Below are positions 2,455-12,813 of a stretch of DNA of 53,250 bases, in pieces (positions within the stretch are counted from its first letter, which is position 1; every line of letters starts with the position of its first letter). A program made the position numbers and the translations under genes. Source of the DNA: Ignavibacteria bacterium (GTDB lineage Bacteria; Bacteroidota; Ignavibacteria; Ch128b); the NCBI GenBank assembly GCA_026415235.1, contig JAOAHM010000059.1:1-53250 (forward strand), in the 5' to 3' direction. Below the pieces are notes generated by a model, which saw only the letters and a list, made by a program, of their open reading frames with translations, was not told the DNA's origin and ran no database searches.

Positions 2455-2682
2455 TTAATTAATCATAGTCACATGAATTTTCTTTGCGAGTTCACTACCA
2501 AGAGCAATTTCCAGTCGATTCTTTTTTAATATGACAGTCCCTCCAAGAATTTTATCAAGGCAGGTTACTTTTTCTCCTTCAGCAATTCCAAATCTAATTA
2601 ACTGAAGTTTGTATTCATCATTAGGTAAATGATCAATTATAAATTTTTGTCCCCGCTCTACTTTATCGAGTGTTGTTTTCAT
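2455..2682 (-). CDS. feoA: FeoA-domain ferrous iron transport protein
   Basis: 75 aa SH3-like FeoA sequence, 8 nt upstream of feoB. Confidence 0.9.
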   Translation of the reverse strand: MKTTLDKVERGQKFIIDHLPNDEYKLQLIRFGIAEGEKVTCLDKILGGTVILKKNRLEIALGSELAKKIHVTMIN

Positions 2683-3145
2683 TTCCGTTTTCTCTATTGG
2701 TTTTACATTTGTCTGGATTTTTACAATATCCGTAAATATTAAAGCTATGATTTACAGGAATAAATCCATATTCTTCGCAAATTTTTTCCTGCAATTTCAA
2801 AATTTCGTTATTATCGAATTCAATTATCTTTCCACAATTCAAACAAATCAAGTGGTCGTGTTCACTTACACCTAAACTTTTTTCGTATCGAGCTTCTTTG
2901 CCCATAAAATTATGTTTTGAAAGAAGCCCACACGCTACAAGTAATTCCAGTGTATTGTAAACTGTGGCTCTTGAAATATTGGAACCATCATTTTTCATCG
3001 AAAGAAAAAGTTCATCTGCACTGAAATGCTGAGTTTGTTTGAAGGCATATTCAAGAACCTCAAAACGCTCTGGAGTAATCCGATAAGAACCTTTCTTTAG
3101 AAAGTCCGTGAATATTTCTGTTGCATGAGTTATGTTGATAATCAT
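2663..3145 (-). CDS. Fur/PerR family transcriptional regulator
   Basis: Winged helix with SRATVYNTLELL, HDHLICLNCG and a second Cys pair CKNPDKC; 20-nt overlap with feoA. Confidence 0.93.
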   Translation of the reverse strand: MIINITHATEIFTDFLKKGSYRITPERFEVLEYAFKQTQHFSADELFLSMKNDGSNISRATVYNTLELLVACGLLSKHNFMGKEARYEKSLGVSEHDHLICLNCGKIIEFDNNEILKLQEKICEEYGFIPVNHSFNIYGYCKNPDKCKTNRENGNENNTR

Positions 3146-3157
3146 TTCAATCGTTAT

Positions 3158-3172
3158 TTAGACTAAATCTAA
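3158..3172. promoter_or_regulatory. Candidate Fur/PerR-type 7-1-7 operator
   Basis: TTAGACT-A-AATCTAA imperfect inverted repeat (6/7) 12 nt upstream of the fur-like start codon. Confidence 0.4.
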
Positions 3173-3262
3173 TTTAGAAATCAATTATTTATTAATCAAG
3201 ATTAAACTTTATTCCTTTCTTTTTTGTTGAAAATTGCGAAATTTGAAAAAAAGAGGTGTTCA

Positions 3263-3466
3263 ATGTCAAATTCAACTTTTGAAAAGAAGCAAGTAGTCGG
3301 AACTTCAAAAAAAAGTGTTTCCGATGCAATTGAATCAGTAGTCAAACAATACAGTGCAAGTAATCCAGTCTACTGGTTTGAAGTTACTGAAATTCGTGGT
3401 CGAGTAACTCAAACTGGAGAGATTGAATATCAAGTAACAGTTAACTTAGGTCAAAAAACAAATTAA
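3263..3466 (+). CDS. Dodecin family flavin-binding protein
   Basis: VVGTSKKSVSDAIESVV...WFEVTEIRG...YQVTVNLG; ATG at 3263 preceded by AGAGGTG, so the ORF-track start at 3224 is too long. Confidence 0.85.
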   Translation: MSNSTFEKKQVVGTSKKSVSDAIESVVKQYSASNPVYWFEVTEIRGRVTQTGEIEYQVTVNLGQKTN

Positions 3467-3477
3467 ACGGAGGAAAA

Positions 3478-3960
3478 ATGTCTCTAAAAGTTGGTGATAC
3501 TTATAAAAACTTTACTCTCAAAAATCATCGTTTTGAAGATGTTACATTAAGCGATTTTGTGGGAAAGAAAAATGTCGTTCTTCTATTCTTCCCTTTTGTG
3601 AATACAGGTGTATGCGAAAAAGAACTTTGTCAAACAAGAGATAGCTTGGAAGATTACAAAAATTTAAACGCAACAATTTTCGGAATTAGTGTAGATAGTC
3701 CTTTTGCACAAAAATTATGGAACGATAAACTAAACTTTGGTTTTGATTTATTGAGTGATTTTAATAAAGAAGTATGCCAAATGTATGGTGTTCTTGAAGA
3801 AAATTGGTTACCAGCAAAATATGGATTTAAAGGAGTTGCAAAACGCTCAGCATTTGTTATAGATAAAAATGGAATAATTCAATATGTAGAAGTTTTGGAT
3901 GACCCAGGCAAAGAACCAGATTACGAAAAAATAAAAGAAACTCTTTCAAAGTTATCATAA
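3478..3960 (+). CDS. Peroxiredoxin (AhpC/TSA, AhpE-like)
   Basis: FFPFVNTGVCEKELC active-site region; GGAGG ribosome-binding site upstream. Confidence 0.88.
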   Translation: MSLKVGDTYKNFTLKNHRFEDVTLSDFVGKKNVVLLFFPFVNTGVCEKELCQTRDSLEDYKNLNATIFGISVDSPFAQKLWNDKLNFGFDLLSDFNKEVCQMYGVLEENWLPAKYGFKGVAKRSAFVIDKNGIIQYVEVLDDPGKEPDYEKIKETLSKLS

Positions 3961-4031: not shown

Positions 4032-4526
4032 ATGGGCATTCATTTCTTAAAATATCTATCTAATATTCTTCAAGTTTTTGCAATTGTTATTTGGTCAGGT
4101 AGCCTTTTTATGATTGTTTTCATTTTATTCCCTCAACTTCGAAAATCTAATGATAAAAAAATCTTGACTAATCAATTTTTTATTGAAGCCATTAACAAAT
4201 TAGAGTATTCGTTTATCTTTGGAATTATTTTTTTGTGGAGTGGAATTTTAATTCATCTCATTACAGCATCTATTAATCCCTTAAAATCAAAATTATATAT
4301 TCTTTACATTTGTTTATCAGCATTGTTAAGTTTCTTCACATTATTGAAAATTTTTTGGATACAGCATTCAATTATAAAGTCCGAAAAAAGTATGAAGTTA
4401 TTTTTACAAGAAGAACTTCAAACTGAAATTGAAAGAAGAATTGAAAGTTATAAAAATGCATATTACTTCATTTCCATAGTAAACCTTTTAATTATCACAG
4501 TAATTATTTTCATAAAACAATACTAA
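4032..4526 (+). CDS. Small integral membrane protein, DUF4149-like
   Basis: About four hydrophobic helices; VIWSGSLFMIVFILFPQL N-terminus; family assignment from memory. Confidence 0.5.
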   Translation: MGIHFLKYLSNILQVFAIVIWSGSLFMIVFILFPQLRKSNDKKILTNQFFIEAINKLEYSFIFGIIFLWSGILIHLITASINPLKSKLYILYICLSALLSFFTLLKIFWIQHSIIKSEKSMKLFLQEELQTEIERRIESYKNAYYFISIVNLLIITVIIFIKQY

Positions 4527-4538
4527 AAGGAGAAAAAG

Positions 4539-4997
4539 ATGTTAAAAGAAGGAGCAAAAGCACCAGCATTCTCCCTCCCAAATCAAGATGGGAAAAAAAT
4601 TTCTTTGAAAGATTTTTTAGGTAAGAAGGTGGTTCTTTATTTCTATCCGAAGGATATGACATCTGGTTGTACAAAGGAAGCGTGCGATTTCAGAGATCAC
4701 ATCAAATTATTTCACAATAGCGATGTTGTTGTTTTAGGTGTAAGTCCAGACTCAATTGAATCTCACAAAAAATTTAAAGAGAAATATAACTTACCATTTG
4801 ATTTACTTAGTGATGAATCAAAAAAAGTTCTTGAGAAGTATGGTGTTTGGAAAGAAAAAAGTATGTATGGCAAAAAATACTTTGGAGTTGAAAGAACAAC
4901 ATTTATAATTGATGAGAATGGAAAAATCAAAAAGATTTTTCCAAAAGTTAAAGTTGATGGTCATGTCAAAGAAGTCTTAAAAGCACTGGAAACTTAA
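4539..4997 (+). CDS. bcp: Thioredoxin-dependent thiol peroxidase (Bcp/PrxQ)
   Basis: FYPKDMTSGCTKEACDFRD, YGVWKEKSMYGKKYFGVERTTFIIDENG. Confidence 0.95.
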   Translation: MLKEGAKAPAFSLPNQDGKKISLKDFLGKKVVLYFYPKDMTSGCTKEACDFRDHIKLFHNSDVVVLGVSPDSIESHKKFKEKYNLPFDLLSDESKKVLEKYGVWKEKSMYGKKYFGVERTTFIIDENGKIKKIFPKVKVDGHVKEVLKALET

Positions 4998-5000
4998 AAA

Positions 5001-5468
5001 ATGGAAAAACCACAATTGGATAAAGACAAAATCAAACTTCTTGCAAATTCAAAAACATACAAAAATTTGTTGGAAGGATTCGCTTTAGAAAGTCAAGCAA
5101 ATCGAAGGTATTTATTTTTTGCTCAAAGAGCTAAAGAGGAAGGATTTGAAGAGATTGCAAATGTTTTTTTCGAAACAGCAGAAGGAGAAGGTGGACATTC
5201 ATTCGGGCACATAGAGTTTTTAGCACCAGTTGCAGATCCTTTAACAGGTAGAGAACTTGGTGATACTGAGACCAACCTTAAAACCGCAATAGAAGGCGAG
5301 ACCTACGAATTTTCTGAATTATATCCTGGCTTTGCCAGAGTAGCTCGAGAGGAAGGATTTGATGAGATTGCTGAGTGGTTTGAATTTTTAGCTCGAGCAG
5401 AAAAGTCGCACGCAGGTAGACTTCAAAAGGCTTTAGATTTGCTTTATGAGTTAAAAAAGAAAAAATAA
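5001..5468 (+). CDS. Rubrerythrin family diiron protein without rubredoxin domain
   Basis: Two ExxH-type halves ([19 protein letters not shown]...[31 protein letters not shown]); no C-terminal CxxC pairs. Confidence 0.93.
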
Positions 5469-5512
5469 ATTCTTCCTCTTTGAGAACTATTCAAAATCTT
5501 ATGAGGTTTTAA

Positions 5513-6097
5513 TTGAAAAAAATTGAATTTGAAGATATTATACCTTATCACGAATACATAAAAATTAGAAAAGATTTTCAAGATAGGATAATCAAATTAA
5601 AGAAAAATCGCAGAGTACAAGTAGGAAATTATATCACTTTTGTTTTTGAGAATCGTCAAACTGTGCTTTATCAAATTCAGGAAATGATTCGACTCGAAAA
5701 AATGACTGATGAGAGATTGATTAAAAACGAAATAGAAGTTTTCAATCAATTAATTCCAGGTGAGAATGAACTCTGCGCAACAATGTTGATTGAAATCTTT
5801 GAGCGTCATTTAATCAAACCTATTTTAAATTCTTTAATTGGTATTCACGATAAAAAAATATTTCTTCAATTTGATGATATATCAATCACACCAATTTTCT
5901 ACGATGAAAATTTAGCTGAAGGTAAAATTAGTGCTGTTCAATATGTAAAATTTACTTTTACCAAAGAACAAACTAATAAATTCATTGAAAACAAATCTCC
6001 AGCAAAGATTTTAGTCAATCACGAGAACTACAAAGCCGAAACAATAATTCCCGAAAATGTTAGAGCAAGTTTAATTGAGGATTTAAAAGGATTATGA
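5513..6097 (+). CDS. DUF3501 family protein
   Basis: EYIKIRKDFQDRIIKLKKNRRVQVGNYITFVFENRQTVLYQIQEMIRLE; likely TTG start; 4-nt overlap with the next gene. Confidence 0.85.
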   Translation: MKKIEFEDIIPYHEYIKIRKDFQDRIIKLKKNRRVQVGNYITFVFENRQTVLYQIQEMIRLEKMTDERLIKNEIEVFNQLIPGENELCATMLIEIFERHLIKPILNSLIGIHDKKIFLQFDDISITPIFYDENLAEGKISAVQYVKFTFTKEQTNKFIENKSPAKILVNHENYKAETIIPENVRASLIEDLKGL

Positions 6098-6504
6098 AAA
6101 TTTATGTAACCAGAAAAACTCATTTCGCCGCAGCACATAGACTTTACAATCCAAATTTTAGCGACGAAAAGAATAATGAAATTTATGGTCTCTGTAACAA
6201 TCCAAACTACCATGGTCACAATTACATTTTAGAAGTAACCGTATGCGGTGAACCTGACCCTGAAACTGGTTATTTAATTGACTTAAAAAAATTAAAAGAA
6301 ATTGTGGAAGAAAAAATCATAAAATATGTTGATCACAAAAATCTAAATCTCGAAGTTGATTTTTTGAAAGGTATAATTCCAACTGCTGAAAATTTAGCTT
6401 TTGCTTTTTGGAAACGGTTGGAAAATGAAATTCCAAGTGGAAAATTATATTCAATAAAAATCTATGAAAGTGAAAGAAACATTGTAGAATATAGAGGTGA
6501 ATAA
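6094..6504 (+). CDS. 6-pyruvoyl-tetrahydropterin synthase family protein, PTPS-type motif
   Basis: [11 protein letters not shown] (C-x5-HGHNY), [39 protein letters not shown]. Confidence 0.93.
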
Positions 6505-7070
6505 TGAATAAAGAAAAAATTCAAACTCTTGTAAGAGAACTTCTGGTTGAAATCGGAGAGAATCCAGATCGTGAAGGATTAATTAGAACTCCAGAGCGAG
6601 TTGCCAAAGCATACGAATTCCTCACTCGTGGCTATCAACAAGATGTTGATGAAATTATGAACAAAGCAATATTTACAGAAAAATATGATGAAATGGTGAT
6701 TGTGAAAGACATTGATTTCTATTCGATGTGTGAACATCACATGTTACCATTTTTTGGAAAAGCTCATGTTGCTTATATACCAAACGGAAAAATCATCGGA
6801 CTAAGTAAAATTCCAAGACTCGTAGATATTTTTGCAAGACGATTACAAGTTCAAGAAAGATTAACCCAACAAATTGCTGATACATTAAATGAATATCTTA
6901 AACCAGACGGTGTGGGCGTTGTGATTGAAGCAATGCACATGTGCATGATGATGCGTGGAGTTGAAAAACAAAACAGTATTGCAACAACAAGTGCGATGCA
7001 CGGCTCGTTCAAAGAAGATGAAAGAACAAGAGCTGAATTTTTAACACTAATTAAATCAGGATTAAAGTAG
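6504..7070 (+). CDS. folE: GTP cyclohydrolase I
   Basis: [43 protein letters not shown]-terminal HGSF. Confidence 0.97.
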
Positions 7071-7792
7071 TGAAGGAAGAAAAAAAAGTCGTTTGGGTCA
7101 CTGGTGGCTCAAGCGGAATCGGAAAAGCAATAGCTTACAACTTAGCTAAAATAAATTGTAAAGTTTACATTTCCGGTAGAAGAAATTCCGAGCTCGAGAG
7201 AACGATTAAAGAATTTTCAAAAGAAAAGTTAAAATTAAAAGCTATTCCATGTAATGTTGCATCAGAAGTAAATGTGAGTCAAGTTGTTAAATCAATTATT
7301 AGAGAAGAAGGAAAAATTGATTGCCTTATTAACAATGCTGGAGTAACTGTTTTCAAAAATGTAATTGAAACTTCAAATCGTGAAGCTAAAGAGATAATTG
7401 ATATAAACCTATTAGGTACAATTTACTGTACAAAAAATGTTTTGCCTTATATGATGGAAAAGAAAAGTGGAATTATTATTAACATTAGTTCATTTGCTTC
7501 AAGAAAAATTTATCCTAAAAGTGCTGTTTACTCTGCATCAAAGGCAGGTTTGAATACTTTTGCTAATTGTCTAAGAGAAGAAGTTAGAGAGTTTGGAATC
7601 AAAGTGATAAATATTTTGCCAGGACCAACTGAAACTCCTATGTGGGACAAAGAGATCAGAAAAATCTATTCAGATAAAATGATGAAACCCGACGATTTAG
7701 CTCACTTAGTTGTCTCTGTCTTCCTTCAACCAGATAATTTAGTAAGTGAAGAAATTGTTGTAAGACCAATTTGTGGAGATTTAAATGTCTGA
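7070..7792 (+). CDS. Short-chain dehydrogenase/reductase
   Basis: TGGSSGIGKA, NNAG, YSASK, PGPTETPM; GTG start; 1-nt overlap with folE. Confidence 0.92.
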   Translation: MKEEKKVVWVTGGSSGIGKAIAYNLAKINCKVYISGRRNSELERTIKEFSKEKLKLKAIPCNVASEVNVSQVVKSIIREEGKIDCLINNAGVTVFKNVIETSNREAKEIIDINLLGTIYCTKNVLPYMMEKKSGIIINISSFASRKIYPKSAVYSASKAGLNTFANCLREEVREFGIKVINILPGPTETPMWDKEIRKIYSDKMMKPDDLAHLVVSVFLQPDNLVSEEIVVRPICGDLNV

Positions 7793-8498
7793 ACTCAAAG
7801 GCAAAAATGTCTTTATTTCTGGAGTGAGCAAAGGCATTGGTAAAGCCATTGCTATAAAACTCGCAAAAGAAGGTTGCAACATTTTCGGGCTTTCAAGAAC
7901 AAAAGTCGATCTTGAAAAACTTCAAGATGAACTTAAACCATTCAATATTTATAATAAATTTTTTGCGGTTGATGTAGGAGACTACTACAATTTGAAATCA
8001 ACTCTCGAACCTTTTTTGAAGGAAACTAAAATAGATATACTCGTTAACAACGCTGGAATAGGAATGTTCAAAAACCTCATTGAATATTCTTATGAAGAAT
8101 TTGACCGAGTCATTAAAACAAATCTTTATGGTGTCTTCAATTTAACACACTTAATTTTACCTTCAATGATAGAACAAGAATTCGGTGATATTATTTTCAT
8201 TTCTTCACTTGCTGGTAAGAATGTAAATGCGGGAGGAACAGCTTACTCTGCTACTAAATTTGCATTGACAGGTTTTGCTCATTCACTTATGCTTGAGGTT
8301 CGTCAGTATAATATTCGTGTTTGTTTAGTTCATCCAGGTTCAGTTGATACTGATTTAATTGGTAATTTCAATCCGAACATAAACAGAGAAAAAATATTAA
8401 AACCGGAAGATGTTGCAGAAGGTATCTTAACCTTCCTCAAATTACCACGAAGAGCAATGCTCTCAGAATTTGAAATAAGACCTACAAATCCAAAATAA
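7785..8498 (+). CDS. Short-chain dehydrogenase/reductase
   Basis: SGVSKGIGKA, NNAGIG, YSATK, HPGSVDT; 8-nt overlap with the preceding SDR. Confidence 0.92.
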   Translation: MSELKGKNVFISGVSKGIGKAIAIKLAKEGCNIFGLSRTKVDLEKLQDELKPFNIYNKFFAVDVGDYYNLKSTLEPFLKETKIDILVNNAGIGMFKNLIEYSYEEFDRVIKTNLYGVFNLTHLILPSMIEQEFGDIIFISSLAGKNVNAGGTAYSATKFALTGFAHSLMLEVRQYNIRVCLVHPGSVDTDLIGNFNPNINREKILKPEDVAEGILTFLKLPRRAMLSEFEIRPTNPK

Positions 8499-8644: not shown

Positions 8645-9133
8645 CTAATCCTTATCCCACCAAGGACCATGCATTCCACAAGGACATGGTCCACATCCAG
8701 GTTTTCTGATTGGAAAATCTTTTCTAAACTTTGGACCCATGAATTTCCCATCTTTGAAAAATTCGCTTCGAAGTTCACGAAACTTTTCTTTCTGTTTTTC
8801 GTCAAGCAGATTGTAAACATCAAACCAATGATTTAATCTTTGTTTTTGTATCCTTGCTCTCAACTCGCTCATTTTGTCAGTTAATACTTCAATCTTTTTT
8901 CTATCAGGATTTGATTTACGCCATTCGCTTCTTAAATCAATTGCTAATTTTTCTAATTCATTTTTTAAGTCGGACATTTTCTTTAGATGTTCATCTCGCA
9001 ACTTTTCAATTTCCGCAATCTGCTTATCTGTTAAATCTAATTTATCCCTAAAGTAACCTCTTAGTGGTTGACCTATTAAGTTACCAAAGAAAACTATTGT
9101 TATTACTGCAATCGCTAATAATTTCGTTTTCAT
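8645..9133 (-). CDS. Secreted Spy/CpxP/ZraP-like helical protein
   Basis: Signal peptide, LDLTDKQIAEIEKLRDEHLKKM LTxxQ-like repeat, Cys/His/Trp-rich tail GCGPCPCGMHGPWWDKD. Confidence 0.7.
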   Translation of the reverse strand: MKTKLLAIAVITIVFFGNLIGQPLRGYFRDKLDLTDKQIAEIEKLRDEHLKKMSDLKNELEKLAIDLRSEWRKSNPDRKKIEVLTDKMSELRARIQKQRLNHWFDVYNLLDEKQKEKFRELRSEFFKDGKFMGPKFRKDFPIRKPGCGPCPCGMHGPWWDKD

Positions 9134-11114: not shown

Positions 11115-11284
11115 TTTGCTCTCCTCTTTTATTATTTGGCAAAATAGTTTGATAAAAGTTAATTATCAAGAAGTAAAAAATCCCAGATTCAACCATTTCT
11201 TATTTATCAATTAGCAAGGTTTCCAAAATTTTTGTGGATAATTCAATCTCCACATTTTTTATCTTTGTAAAAATCGGAGAAAAT

Positions 11285-12813
11285 ATGAAAAGGATAAATT
11301 CAGTAATCTCAAATATCTTTAACAAATCATTAGATGTTATAGAGTATATAGGGAATAAACTTCCCCATCCAGCCACATTATTTGCTTTGCTTGCATTAAT
11401 CGTTGCAATTTTTTCAATGATTGGAGCAATCCTTGATTGGACAGCTATTCATCCTGCAAACAACTCTGAAATTAAAGTAAAAAACTTATTGAATGCTGAT
11501 GGGTTGAGGTGGATTTATACAAATGTCACACACAACTTCGTTAACTTTCCACCTCTTGGTTATGTTCTCGCTGTTATGATTGGAATTGGTGTTGCCGAAG
11601 GTTCTGGTCTTTTCACCGCTTTGATTAGAGCGTTAGTATTAAGCGCACCAAAAAGTATGATTACATTTGCTTTGGTTTTTACAGGAATTCTATCTCACAT
11701 TGCATCTGAAGCTGGTTATGTAATATTAATACCTCTTGGTGCAATGTTATTCCATGCACTCGGTAGACATCCCATGGCAGGACTTGCAGCTGCTTTTTGT
11801 GGTGTAAGTGGAGGTTTTGGAGCTAATTTTTTGATTGGTTCTGTTGATCCTATTCTTGCAGGTCTAACACAATCAGCAGCTCAATCATTGACCCAAATAT
11901 TAAAATTAATGCAGCTGTTAATTTTTATTTCATGTTCGTATCAGCTATACTTATCACTTTTCTTGGTACATTCATTACTGAAAGGATTGTTGAACCTCGA
12001 CTTAAAACTTATACTGGTAACGCTGAGAGAGTTAATGTTGAAACTATCTCACCAGAAGAAAAGAAAGGATTGCGATGGGCAGGTCTTAGTGCATTAATTT
12101 TACTTCTCGTTTTAATATCAACTATCATCCCCGAAAACGGTTTGTTAAGAAATCCAGAAACTAAGGAAATTCTTCACTCTCCTTTCTTTGATGGAATAAT
12201 CACAGGCATCCTTTTATTCTTTTTCATTCCTGGAATGGTTTATGGTATTGTAGTTAAGTCTATTCGTAACGATAAAGATTTAATGAAGCACATTATAAAA
12301 TCAATGGGAACGATGGCTACATATATCGTACTGGTCTTCTTCGCTGCACAGTTTGTTTATTTCTTTAGATATAGTAACCTCGGTTTAATCATTGCAATCA
12401 AAGGTGCGGAATTTTTGAAGAGCATTCAGTTAACTGGTGTAAGCTTGATAGTCGCTTTTGTTTTACTTTCTGCTTTCATTAATCTATTCATGGGAAGTGC
12501 TTCAGCAAAATGGGCAATAATGGCTCCTGTATTTGTACCAATGTTTATGTTGCTTGGATATCATCCTGCATTAACTCAAGCTGCTTTTCGAATTGGAGAT
12601 TCAGTTACTAATCTGATTACACCAATGATGAGTTATTTTGCTTTGATTGTAGCATTCGCACAAAAGTATGACGAGAAATACGGTATTGGCACAATTATTT
12701 CTACAATGATACCTTATACAATTTTATTTACAATTTTCTGGACTTTGCTTTTAATCATTTGGATGTTAATCGGATTGCCGGTTGGACCTGATGGACCTCT
12801 TTATCTCAAATAA
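11285..12813 (+). pseudogene. AbgT family transporter interrupted by a frameshift near 11885-11887
   Basis: N-terminal part in frame of 11285, C-terminal part in the frame of ORF 11932; restoring one base gives ...QSAAQS-IDPNIKINAAVNFYFMFVSAILI..., continuous AbgT-like sequence. Confidence 0.85.

What the first reader, a model, noticed from the sequence alone, without database searches (positions are those of the whole stretch)
5001..8498. Rubrerythrin-DUF3501-PTPS-FolE-SDR-SDR operon: a candidate tetrahydropterin system tied to oxidative stress
Genes from DUF3501 onward overlap by 4, 1, 1 and 8 nt, strongly suggesting one translationally coupled unit fed from the peroxiredoxin/rubrerythrin genes just upstream. 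GTP cyclohydrolase I, a PTPS-type enzyme and SDR reductases are the three activities needed for biopterin-type synthesis (SDR as sepiapterin reductase). Green sulfur bacteria are known to make biopterin glycosides. Coupling this to DUF3501 and rubrerythrin points to an uncharacterised role for a reduced pterin in redox defence, and a possible function for DUF3501. No pterin-dependent aromatic amino acid hydroxylase is visible in the window.
Basis: partly seen in the sequence, partly recalled or inferred. Interest (0 to 1): 0.75.

Follow-up and report, generated by a model that had tools for sequence, protein, structure and literature searches.

The report
Peroxide-defence operon making a biopterin cofactor
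A bacterium related to Ignavibacterium carries, in one operon, peroxide-destroying enzymes and what looks like a complete pathway for a tetrahydrobiopterin-like cofactor, although its known user enzyme was not found in the genome; this gene order recurs across many related families, so the cofactor probably has an undescribed job linked to oxidative stress.

Summary
In detail: rubrerythrin, DUF3501, PTPS, FolE, SDR1 and SDR2 lie at 5001-8498, with overlaps of 4, 1, 1 and 8 nt. The run extends upstream through two peroxiredoxins and a dodecin to a divergent fur gene.

The pterin reading is well supported. The PTPS has the biopterin-type motif CxxxxxHGH; the genome has its own QueD and FolB. SDR1 carries the two residues (Phe99, Trp196) needed by Chlorobium tepidum sepiapterin reductase. 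In Ignavibacteriaceae the same operon begins with phenylalanine hydroxylase.

The redox link is real at the level of gene order. Peroxiredoxins or DUF3501 lie just upstream of PTPS in 13 of 20 families sampled, although 104 of 117 genomes with this PTPS lack phenylalanine hydroxylase.

New point: DUF3501, reported to occur almost only with aerobic-type rubrerythrin, sits beside PTPS in 27 of 30 genomes that have both, including lineages without that rubrerythrin. In two genomes it stays with PTPS while rubrerythrin-RFO lies elsewhere.

What the pterin does remains inferred. The host is not a green sulfur bacterium, and the rubrerythrin-DUF3501 pair itself was already published. I rate it a new variant of a known kind.

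The parts
2663..3145 (-). Fur-family regulator, divergent from the operon
   Evidence: NCBIfam Fur models, best 4.1e-28, below their cut-offs; a fur-like gene lies divergent in the same place in f1 and Melioribacteraceae loci
3155..3177 (.). Candidate operator: conserved palindromic block TATTTAGACTAAATCTAATTTAG (core TTAGACTAAATCTAA at 3158-3172) in the fur-dodecin intergenic region
   Evidence: nearly invariant in 5 family members in an otherwise diverged spacer; core motif in 5 of 207 loci, all with fur and dodecin; no binding evidence
3263..3466 (+). dodecin (flavin-binding protein)
   Evidence: PF07311 8.7e-11; the listed ORF starts at TTG 3224, the ATG at 3263 is the likelier start
3478..3960 (+). 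peroxiredoxin 1 (AhpC/TSA)
   Evidence: PF00578 6e-35
4032..4526 (+). small predicted membrane protein without a Pfam match
   Evidence: seen only in the window's family
4539..4997 (+). peroxiredoxin 2 (Bcp/PrxQ type)
   Evidence: NF006960 1.6e-53, above cut-off
5001..5468 (+). aerobic-type rubrerythrin (ferritin-like domain only, no rubredoxin domain)
   Evidence: PF02915 residues 21-144 of 155; 64-87% identical homologues in f1, f8, f11, f16 and one f2 genome
5513..6097 (+). DUF3501 protein
   Evidence: PF12007 2.6e-59; model pLDDT 92; the only significant structural match is 3fjv, itself a DUF3501 protein of unknown function
6094..6504 (+). PTPS-II, 6-pyruvoyl-tetrahydropterin synthase
   Evidence: motif CNNPNYHGH; mammalian PTPS 1b66 at 5.6e-41 against QueD structures at about 1e-7; ligand and catalytic residues invariant in class
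6504..7070 (+). GTP cyclohydrolase I (FolE), the only true copy found in the genome
   Evidence: TIGR00063 1.6e-81 above cut-off; copy count
7070..7792 (+). SDR1, probable sepiapterin reductase of the C. tepidum type
   Evidence: 2bd0 hit 2.1e-32; Phe99 and Trp196 equivalents present
7785..8498 (+). SDR2, second reductase of unknown substrate
   Evidence: closest PDB chain 2ehd 6e-40; lacks the Trp196 equivalent; separate clade from SDR1

Best explanation
The operon makes a tetrahydrobiopterin-type cofactor and co-expresses it with peroxide-removing enzymes under a Fur-family regulator. FolE converts GTP to dihydroneopterin triphosphate, PTPS-II makes 6-pyruvoyl-tetrahydropterin, and SDR1 reduces the side chain, probably giving L-threo-tetrahydrobiopterin as in Chlorobium tepidum. 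SDR2 most likely does a second carbonyl reduction or regenerates oxidised pterin. The reduced pterin then acts as a low-molecular-weight electron donor or cofactor in microaerobic peroxide defence, with DUF3501 as its protein partner. Shown here by computation: family identities, diagnostic residues, the presence of separate genes for the alternative roles of the PTPS, and conserved gene order. Inferred: product stereochemistry, the role of SDR2, regulation by Fur, and every step after tetrahydropterin synthesis, including any involvement of DUF3501. My confidence in the biosynthesis part alone is about 0.85; the score below is for the whole statement.
For: PTPS-II motif CxxxxxHGH as defined in PMC5041015; separate QueD (CKNLHGH)-QueC-QueF cluster and separate FolB-FolK in the same genome. 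SDR1 has Phe99 and Trp196 equivalents, as do the SDR1 proteins of the class loci, while SDR2 proteins lack the Trp (residues from PMC7520308). PAH heads the same operon in three Ignavibacteriaceae-type genomes (f22) and in loci L123, L132, L138. Peroxiredoxin upstream of PTPS in 11 of 20 families, Rbr-RFO-DUF3501 or RFO-DUF3501 in two more. PAH in only 13 of the 117 genomes with PTPS-II and in none of the window's family. DUF3501 adjacent to PTPS in 27 of 30 genomes with both, including lineages without aerobic-type Rbr.
Against: No consumer of the pterin is identified. NOS and alkylglycerol monooxygenase could not be searched genome-wide. FolE is the only copy, so the operon also has to supply folate and queuosine, which weakens a purely stress-related reading. 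Seven of 20 class families have PTPS without peroxide genes beside it. DUF3501 occurs without PTPS-II in f8 and f16 and without PTPS nearby in Burkholderia. CtSPR does not group firmly with SDR1 in the tree.
Confidence: 0.42

Rival explanations
1. The pterin is an ordinary cofactor for an aromatic amino acid hydroxylase or another oxygenase, and the peroxidases are there to remove the peroxide released by pterin autoxidation and uncoupled turnover. In lineages without PAH another, unrecognised oxygenase uses it.
For: PAH-Prx-PTPS-FolE-SDR1 order in Ignavibacteriaceae; tetrahydropterins are known to autoxidise with peroxide formation (general knowledge); a PCD gene is in the genome.
Against: 104 of 117 PTPS-II genomes lack PAH; PCD lies beside pyrE, not in the operon, and also occurs in PAH-free genomes; does not explain DUF3501.
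Confidence: 0.28
2. The tetrahydrobiopterin is glycosylated, as in Chlorobium and cyanobacteria, and serves as a soluble redox buffer or photoprotectant; peroxide genes are co-regulated because both respond to oxygen or iron.
For: C. tepidum makes L-threo-BH4 and its N-acetylglucosamine glycoside (PMC5683033); the function of such glycosides is unknown (PMC3546692); SDR1 has the C. tepidum residues.
Against: No glycosyltransferase seen in the operon; the C. tepidum enzyme was not searched for in the genome.
Confidence: 0.15
3. Housekeeping cluster: FolE feeds folate and queuosine, PTPS is a QueD or folate-bypass enzyme, and the peroxide genes are neighbours by descent only.
For: FolE is the only true copy in the genome.
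Against: Separate QueD-QueC-QueF and FolB-FolK loci; PTPS-II motif, not CxxxHGH or ExxHGH; linkage kept over class depth while most outer flanks differ.
Confidence: 0.08
4. DUF3501 belongs only to the rubrerythrin-RFO system and is next to PTPS because that cassette was inserted there once and then eroded. (This concerns the DUF3501 part only and can be true together with any of the others.)
For: Rbr-RFO-DUF3501 is the published arrangement (PMC5114695) and is seen in f8, f16 and Burkholderia.
Against: In G033 and G042 DUF3501 stays with PTPS while Rbr-RFO lie elsewhere; six f2 genomes and two f20 genomes tested keep DUF3501-PTPS and have no aerobic-type Rbr.
Confidence: 0.3

Closest known systems
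Tetrahydrobiopterin biosynthesis (GTPCH-I, PTPS-II, sepiapterin reductase), as in Chlorobium tepidum
   Same: all three enzyme classes in consecutive genes; PTPS-II motif; SDR1 with the Phe99/Trp196 pair of the C. tepidum enzyme
   Different: embedded in a peroxide-defence operon; a second SDR; no glycosyltransferase seen in the operon; no PAH found in the genome
Aerobic-type rubrerythrin system (RBR-DUF3501-RFO; Cardenas et al. 2016, PMC5114695)
   Same: rubrerythrin without rubredoxin domain next to DUF3501
   Different: no RFO detected in the genome; DUF3501 overlaps PTPS; elsewhere in the class DUF3501-PTPS exists without aerobic-type RBR
Bacterial PAH-PCD-pterin systems (phhA type)
   Same: in Ignavibacteriaceae PAH heads the same operon
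   Different: PAH not found in the window's family; PCD unlinked

Membership tests
PTPS-II (6-pyruvoyl-tetrahydropterin synthase) | motif CxxxxxHGH | tested here: met
   CNNPNYHGH in the window; C34, H40, G41, H42 invariant in 16 class sequences; motif definition from PMC5041015
PTPS-II (6-pyruvoyl-tetrahydropterin synthase) | zinc ligands and catalytic Asp-His, pterin-anchoring Glu | tested here: met
   H15, H40, H42, D80, H81, E125 invariant; residue roles from own knowledge of the rat enzyme
PTPS-II (6-pyruvoyl-tetrahydropterin synthase) | makes 6-pyruvoyl-tetrahydropterin | not testable with these tools
   needs an enzyme assay
QueD (PTPS-I) | CxxxHGH motif and linkage to queC/queE/queF | tested here: not met
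   the QueD of this genome is a different gene, CKNLHGH, beside queC and queF at G000:C88
PTPS-III (folate bypass) | ExxHGH, and a role where FolB is missing | tested here: not met
   no such Glu; FolB 1.2e-34 at G000:C16 beside a FolK-like ORF
Sepiapterin reductase, C. tepidum type | SDR with Phe99 and Trp196 for substrate binding | tested here: met
   both present in SDR1, Trp absent in SDR2; requirement from PMC7520308
Sepiapterin reductase, C. tepidum type | phylogenetic grouping with CtSPR | tested here: inconclusive
   SDR1 of the class is a supported clade, CtSPR placement weak
Aerobic-type rubrerythrin system | rubrerythrin lacking rubredoxin domain, beside DUF3501 | tested here: met
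Aerobic-type rubrerythrin system | RFO Fe-S oxidoreductase (present in most, not all, systems) | tested here: not met
   best hit 26% over a fragment, 1.8e-5, in G000; likewise none in the five family genomes
PAH-dependent biopterin system | aromatic amino acid hydroxylase in the genome | tested here: not met
   no PF00351 match in G000 (88.8% complete) or five family genomes, 97-100% complete
Other BH4 users (NOS, alkylglycerol monooxygenase) | presence in the genome | not tested

The most novel reading that the evidence does not exclude
DUF3501, a protein with no structural neighbour outside its own family, is a tetrahydropterin-linked redox partner: it binds or regenerates reduced pterin and passes electrons to rubrerythrin or peroxiredoxins, so that tetrahydrobiopterin replaces the missing rubredoxin domain and RFO as electron source in this lineage.
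Probability: 0.15. Interest if true: 0.85.

Novelty: new variant of a known kind. Interest (0 to 1): 0.55.

Why it matters
The function of biopterins in bacteria without aromatic amino acid hydroxylase is unresolved; a review of cyanobacterial and Chlorobium pteridine glycosides says their function is unknown (PMC3546692). A conserved operon that joins the pathway to peroxiredoxins, rubrerythrin and DUF3501 gives a specific, testable role. It also changes the published picture in which DUF3501 is tied almost exclusively to rubrerythrin, and suggests where to look for what this family does, including its mitochondrial copies in protists (PMC7050145).

Tried and rejected
QueD and folate-bypass roles for PTPS: rejected by motif and by separate genes. 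PAH elsewhere in the genome: none found. PCD as a clue to a hydroxylase: uninformative, present in 120 of 139 genomes and unlinked. RFO elsewhere in the genome: none. DUF3501 fold search for a functional hint: only its own solved member 3fjv. Plasmid collection: only Burkholderia DUF3501; the one region examined has Rbr and RFO but no PTPS. Small ORFs of about 105 aa between the peroxiredoxins as possible PCD: the one tested is a rhodanese-like protein. Generic 7-1-7 palindrome count upstream of the operon: no clear excess over shuffles; only the aligned conserved block in the family stands out. Rfam search of the region: nothing. Paper search for biopterin in Ignavibacterium: nothing.

Full report
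1. What is there. The run of same-strand genes starts further upstream: dodecin, AhpC-type peroxiredoxin, a small membrane protein, Bcp/PrxQ peroxiredoxin, rubrerythrin (3 nt after the peroxiredoxin), then DUF3501 after 44 nt. A Fur-family gene and feoB lie divergently (feoB named from its sequence). No terminator-like site was found inside. A palindromic block, TATTTAGACTAAATCTAATTTAG, is almost invariant in five members of the family in the otherwise diverged fur-dodecin spacer, and its core motif occurs in the same spacer in one further Ignavibacteriae locus; it is a candidate operator, nothing more.

2. Whose genome. The window is contig C81 of a 2.14 Mb, 88.8% complete assembly. It is therefore an Ignavibacteria-type organism, not a green sulfur bacterium.

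3. The pterin pathway. The PTPS matches mammalian 6-pyruvoyl-tetrahydropterin synthase at 5.6e-41 and QueD structures only at about 1e-7. It carries the PTPS-II motif CxxxxxHGH as defined in PMC5041015, and the zinc and catalytic residues are invariant in the class. The genome has its own QueD (CKNLHGH) beside QueC and QueF, and a FolB with a FolK-like ORF beside it, so neither queuosine nor folate needs this PTPS. FolE is the only true copy, so it must also feed folate and queuosine. SDR1 hits C. tepidum sepiapterin reductase 2bd0 at 2.1e-32. [quoted passage not shown] Both are present in SDR1 and in the SDR1 proteins of the class loci; SDR2 lacks the Trp, and so do unlinked SDRs in the same loci; SDRs that follow PTPS in Verrucomicrobiota and Rhodothermota keep the Trp although they are remote. 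The tree keeps SDR1 and SDR2 apart but does not fix CtSPR.

4. Independent support from PAH. In three f22 genomes and in loci L123, L132 (Ignavibacteriaceae) and L138, a phenylalanine hydroxylase gene heads the same operon: PAH, Prx, PTPS, FolE, SDR1. That is strong contextual evidence that the operon makes a hydroxylase-competent tetrahydropterin.

5. The missing consumer. PAH was found in 13 of 139 class genomes and in none of the six genomes of the window's family. Counting only strong matches, 117 genomes have PTPS-II, so about 104 appear to make the pterin without PAH. NOS and AGMO were not searched.

6. The redox linkage. In the fetched class loci, from 20 families, a peroxiredoxin lies within 3 kb upstream of PTPS on the same strand in 11 families; in f11 (three of five loci Rbr-RFO-DUF3501) and f20 (RFO-DUF3501) the other peroxide cassette takes its place. 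Seven families have neither. The order persists at PTPS identities of 55-65%, over which most outer flanks have changed.

7. DUF3501. The rubrerythrin-DUF3501-RFO association is published (PMC5114695, PMC7050145, PMC7852563). Here, DUF3501 and PTPS-II co-occur in 30 class genomes and are adjacent in 27, in all four families concerned. A rough null of two genes adjacent in a 2500-gene genome gives about 1e-9 at family level (a crude figure that treats the four families as independent). Eleven f2 genomes have DUF3501-PTPS; of the seven tested, six have no aerobic-type rubrerythrin (only about 45% identical, unlinked rubrerythrins) and none has RFO. Three f20 genomes have DUF3501-PTPS; the two tested lack aerobic-type rubrerythrin but keep RFO. 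In G033 and G042 DUF3501 sits with PTPS while Rbr-RFO lie on another contig or about 140 kb away. Conversely f8 and f16 have Rbr-RFO-DUF3501 and no PTPS-II. In the window's family RFO was not detected. DUF3501 thus associates with both modules. Its predicted structure (pLDDT 92) matches only 3fjv, an unannotated member of the same family, so structure offers no function.

8. Mechanism. Best reading: GTP to dihydroneopterin triphosphate (FolE), to 6-pyruvoyl-tetrahydropterin (PTPS), to tetrahydrobiopterin (SDR1, perhaps with SDR2), made together with enzymes that remove peroxide, probably under Fur-family control. I think it most likely that the reduced pterin is used in that defence, as electron donor or cofactor, with DUF3501 as partner; this last part is inference. 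The main rival is that the peroxidases protect against peroxide generated by the pterin or by a pterin-dependent oxygenase.

9. Verdict. The role is open but now sharply posed. The parts are known; their conserved combination, and a DUF3501-PTPS link independent of rubrerythrin, I did not find in the papers I could search.

Noticed in passing
window 11234-12813 (+): An AbgT-family transporter gene (p-aminobenzoyl-glutamate type) is split into two overlapping ORFs that match profile positions 3-197 and 208-500: a frameshift or assembly error.
   Followed up: partly
window 8645-9133 (-): A small secreted LTXXQ/heavy-metal-resistance protein (Spy/CpxP-like) faces the end of the operon; a related gene on the opposite strand follows the operon in 15 class loci.
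   Followed up: partly
L052:9712-10433: In genome G002 the SDR1 gene reads as two ORFs overlapping by 4 nt (134 and 106 aa): a frameshift or assembly error.
   Followed up: no
L147, L152 (Balneolaceae), L126, L143 (Opitutaceae): PTPS-II is followed by an ORF that looks like FolE2-type GTP cyclohydrolase in place of FolE (read from the sequence, not tested with a model).
   Followed up: no
L085:6536-6850, L123:1162-1482, L183:2503-2820: A rhodanese-like gene lies among the peroxiredoxins of this operon in several lineages (L085 tested, PF00581 3e-19; the others judged by sequence).
   Followed up: partly
L160:4827-6157: Upstream of the peroxiredoxins in this record lie ORFs resembling manganese exporter MntP and methionine sulfoxide reductase MsrA (GCFWC motif), more stress genes in the same neighbourhood (sequence reading only).
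   Followed up: no
class genomes of family f8 (e.g. G031:C59, G057:C113, G133:C68): DUF3501 lies about 2-6 kb from QueC in this genus although PTPS-II is absent; may be chance within one genus.
   Followed up: no
window 2663-3145 (-): The divergent Fur-family protein has Glu (IIEF) where PerR has Asp, which suggests iron-sensing Fur and not PerR (own knowledge, not modelled).
   Followed up: no
window 4032-4526 (+): Membrane protein without Pfam match between the two peroxiredoxin genes, seen only in the window's family.
   Followed up: no
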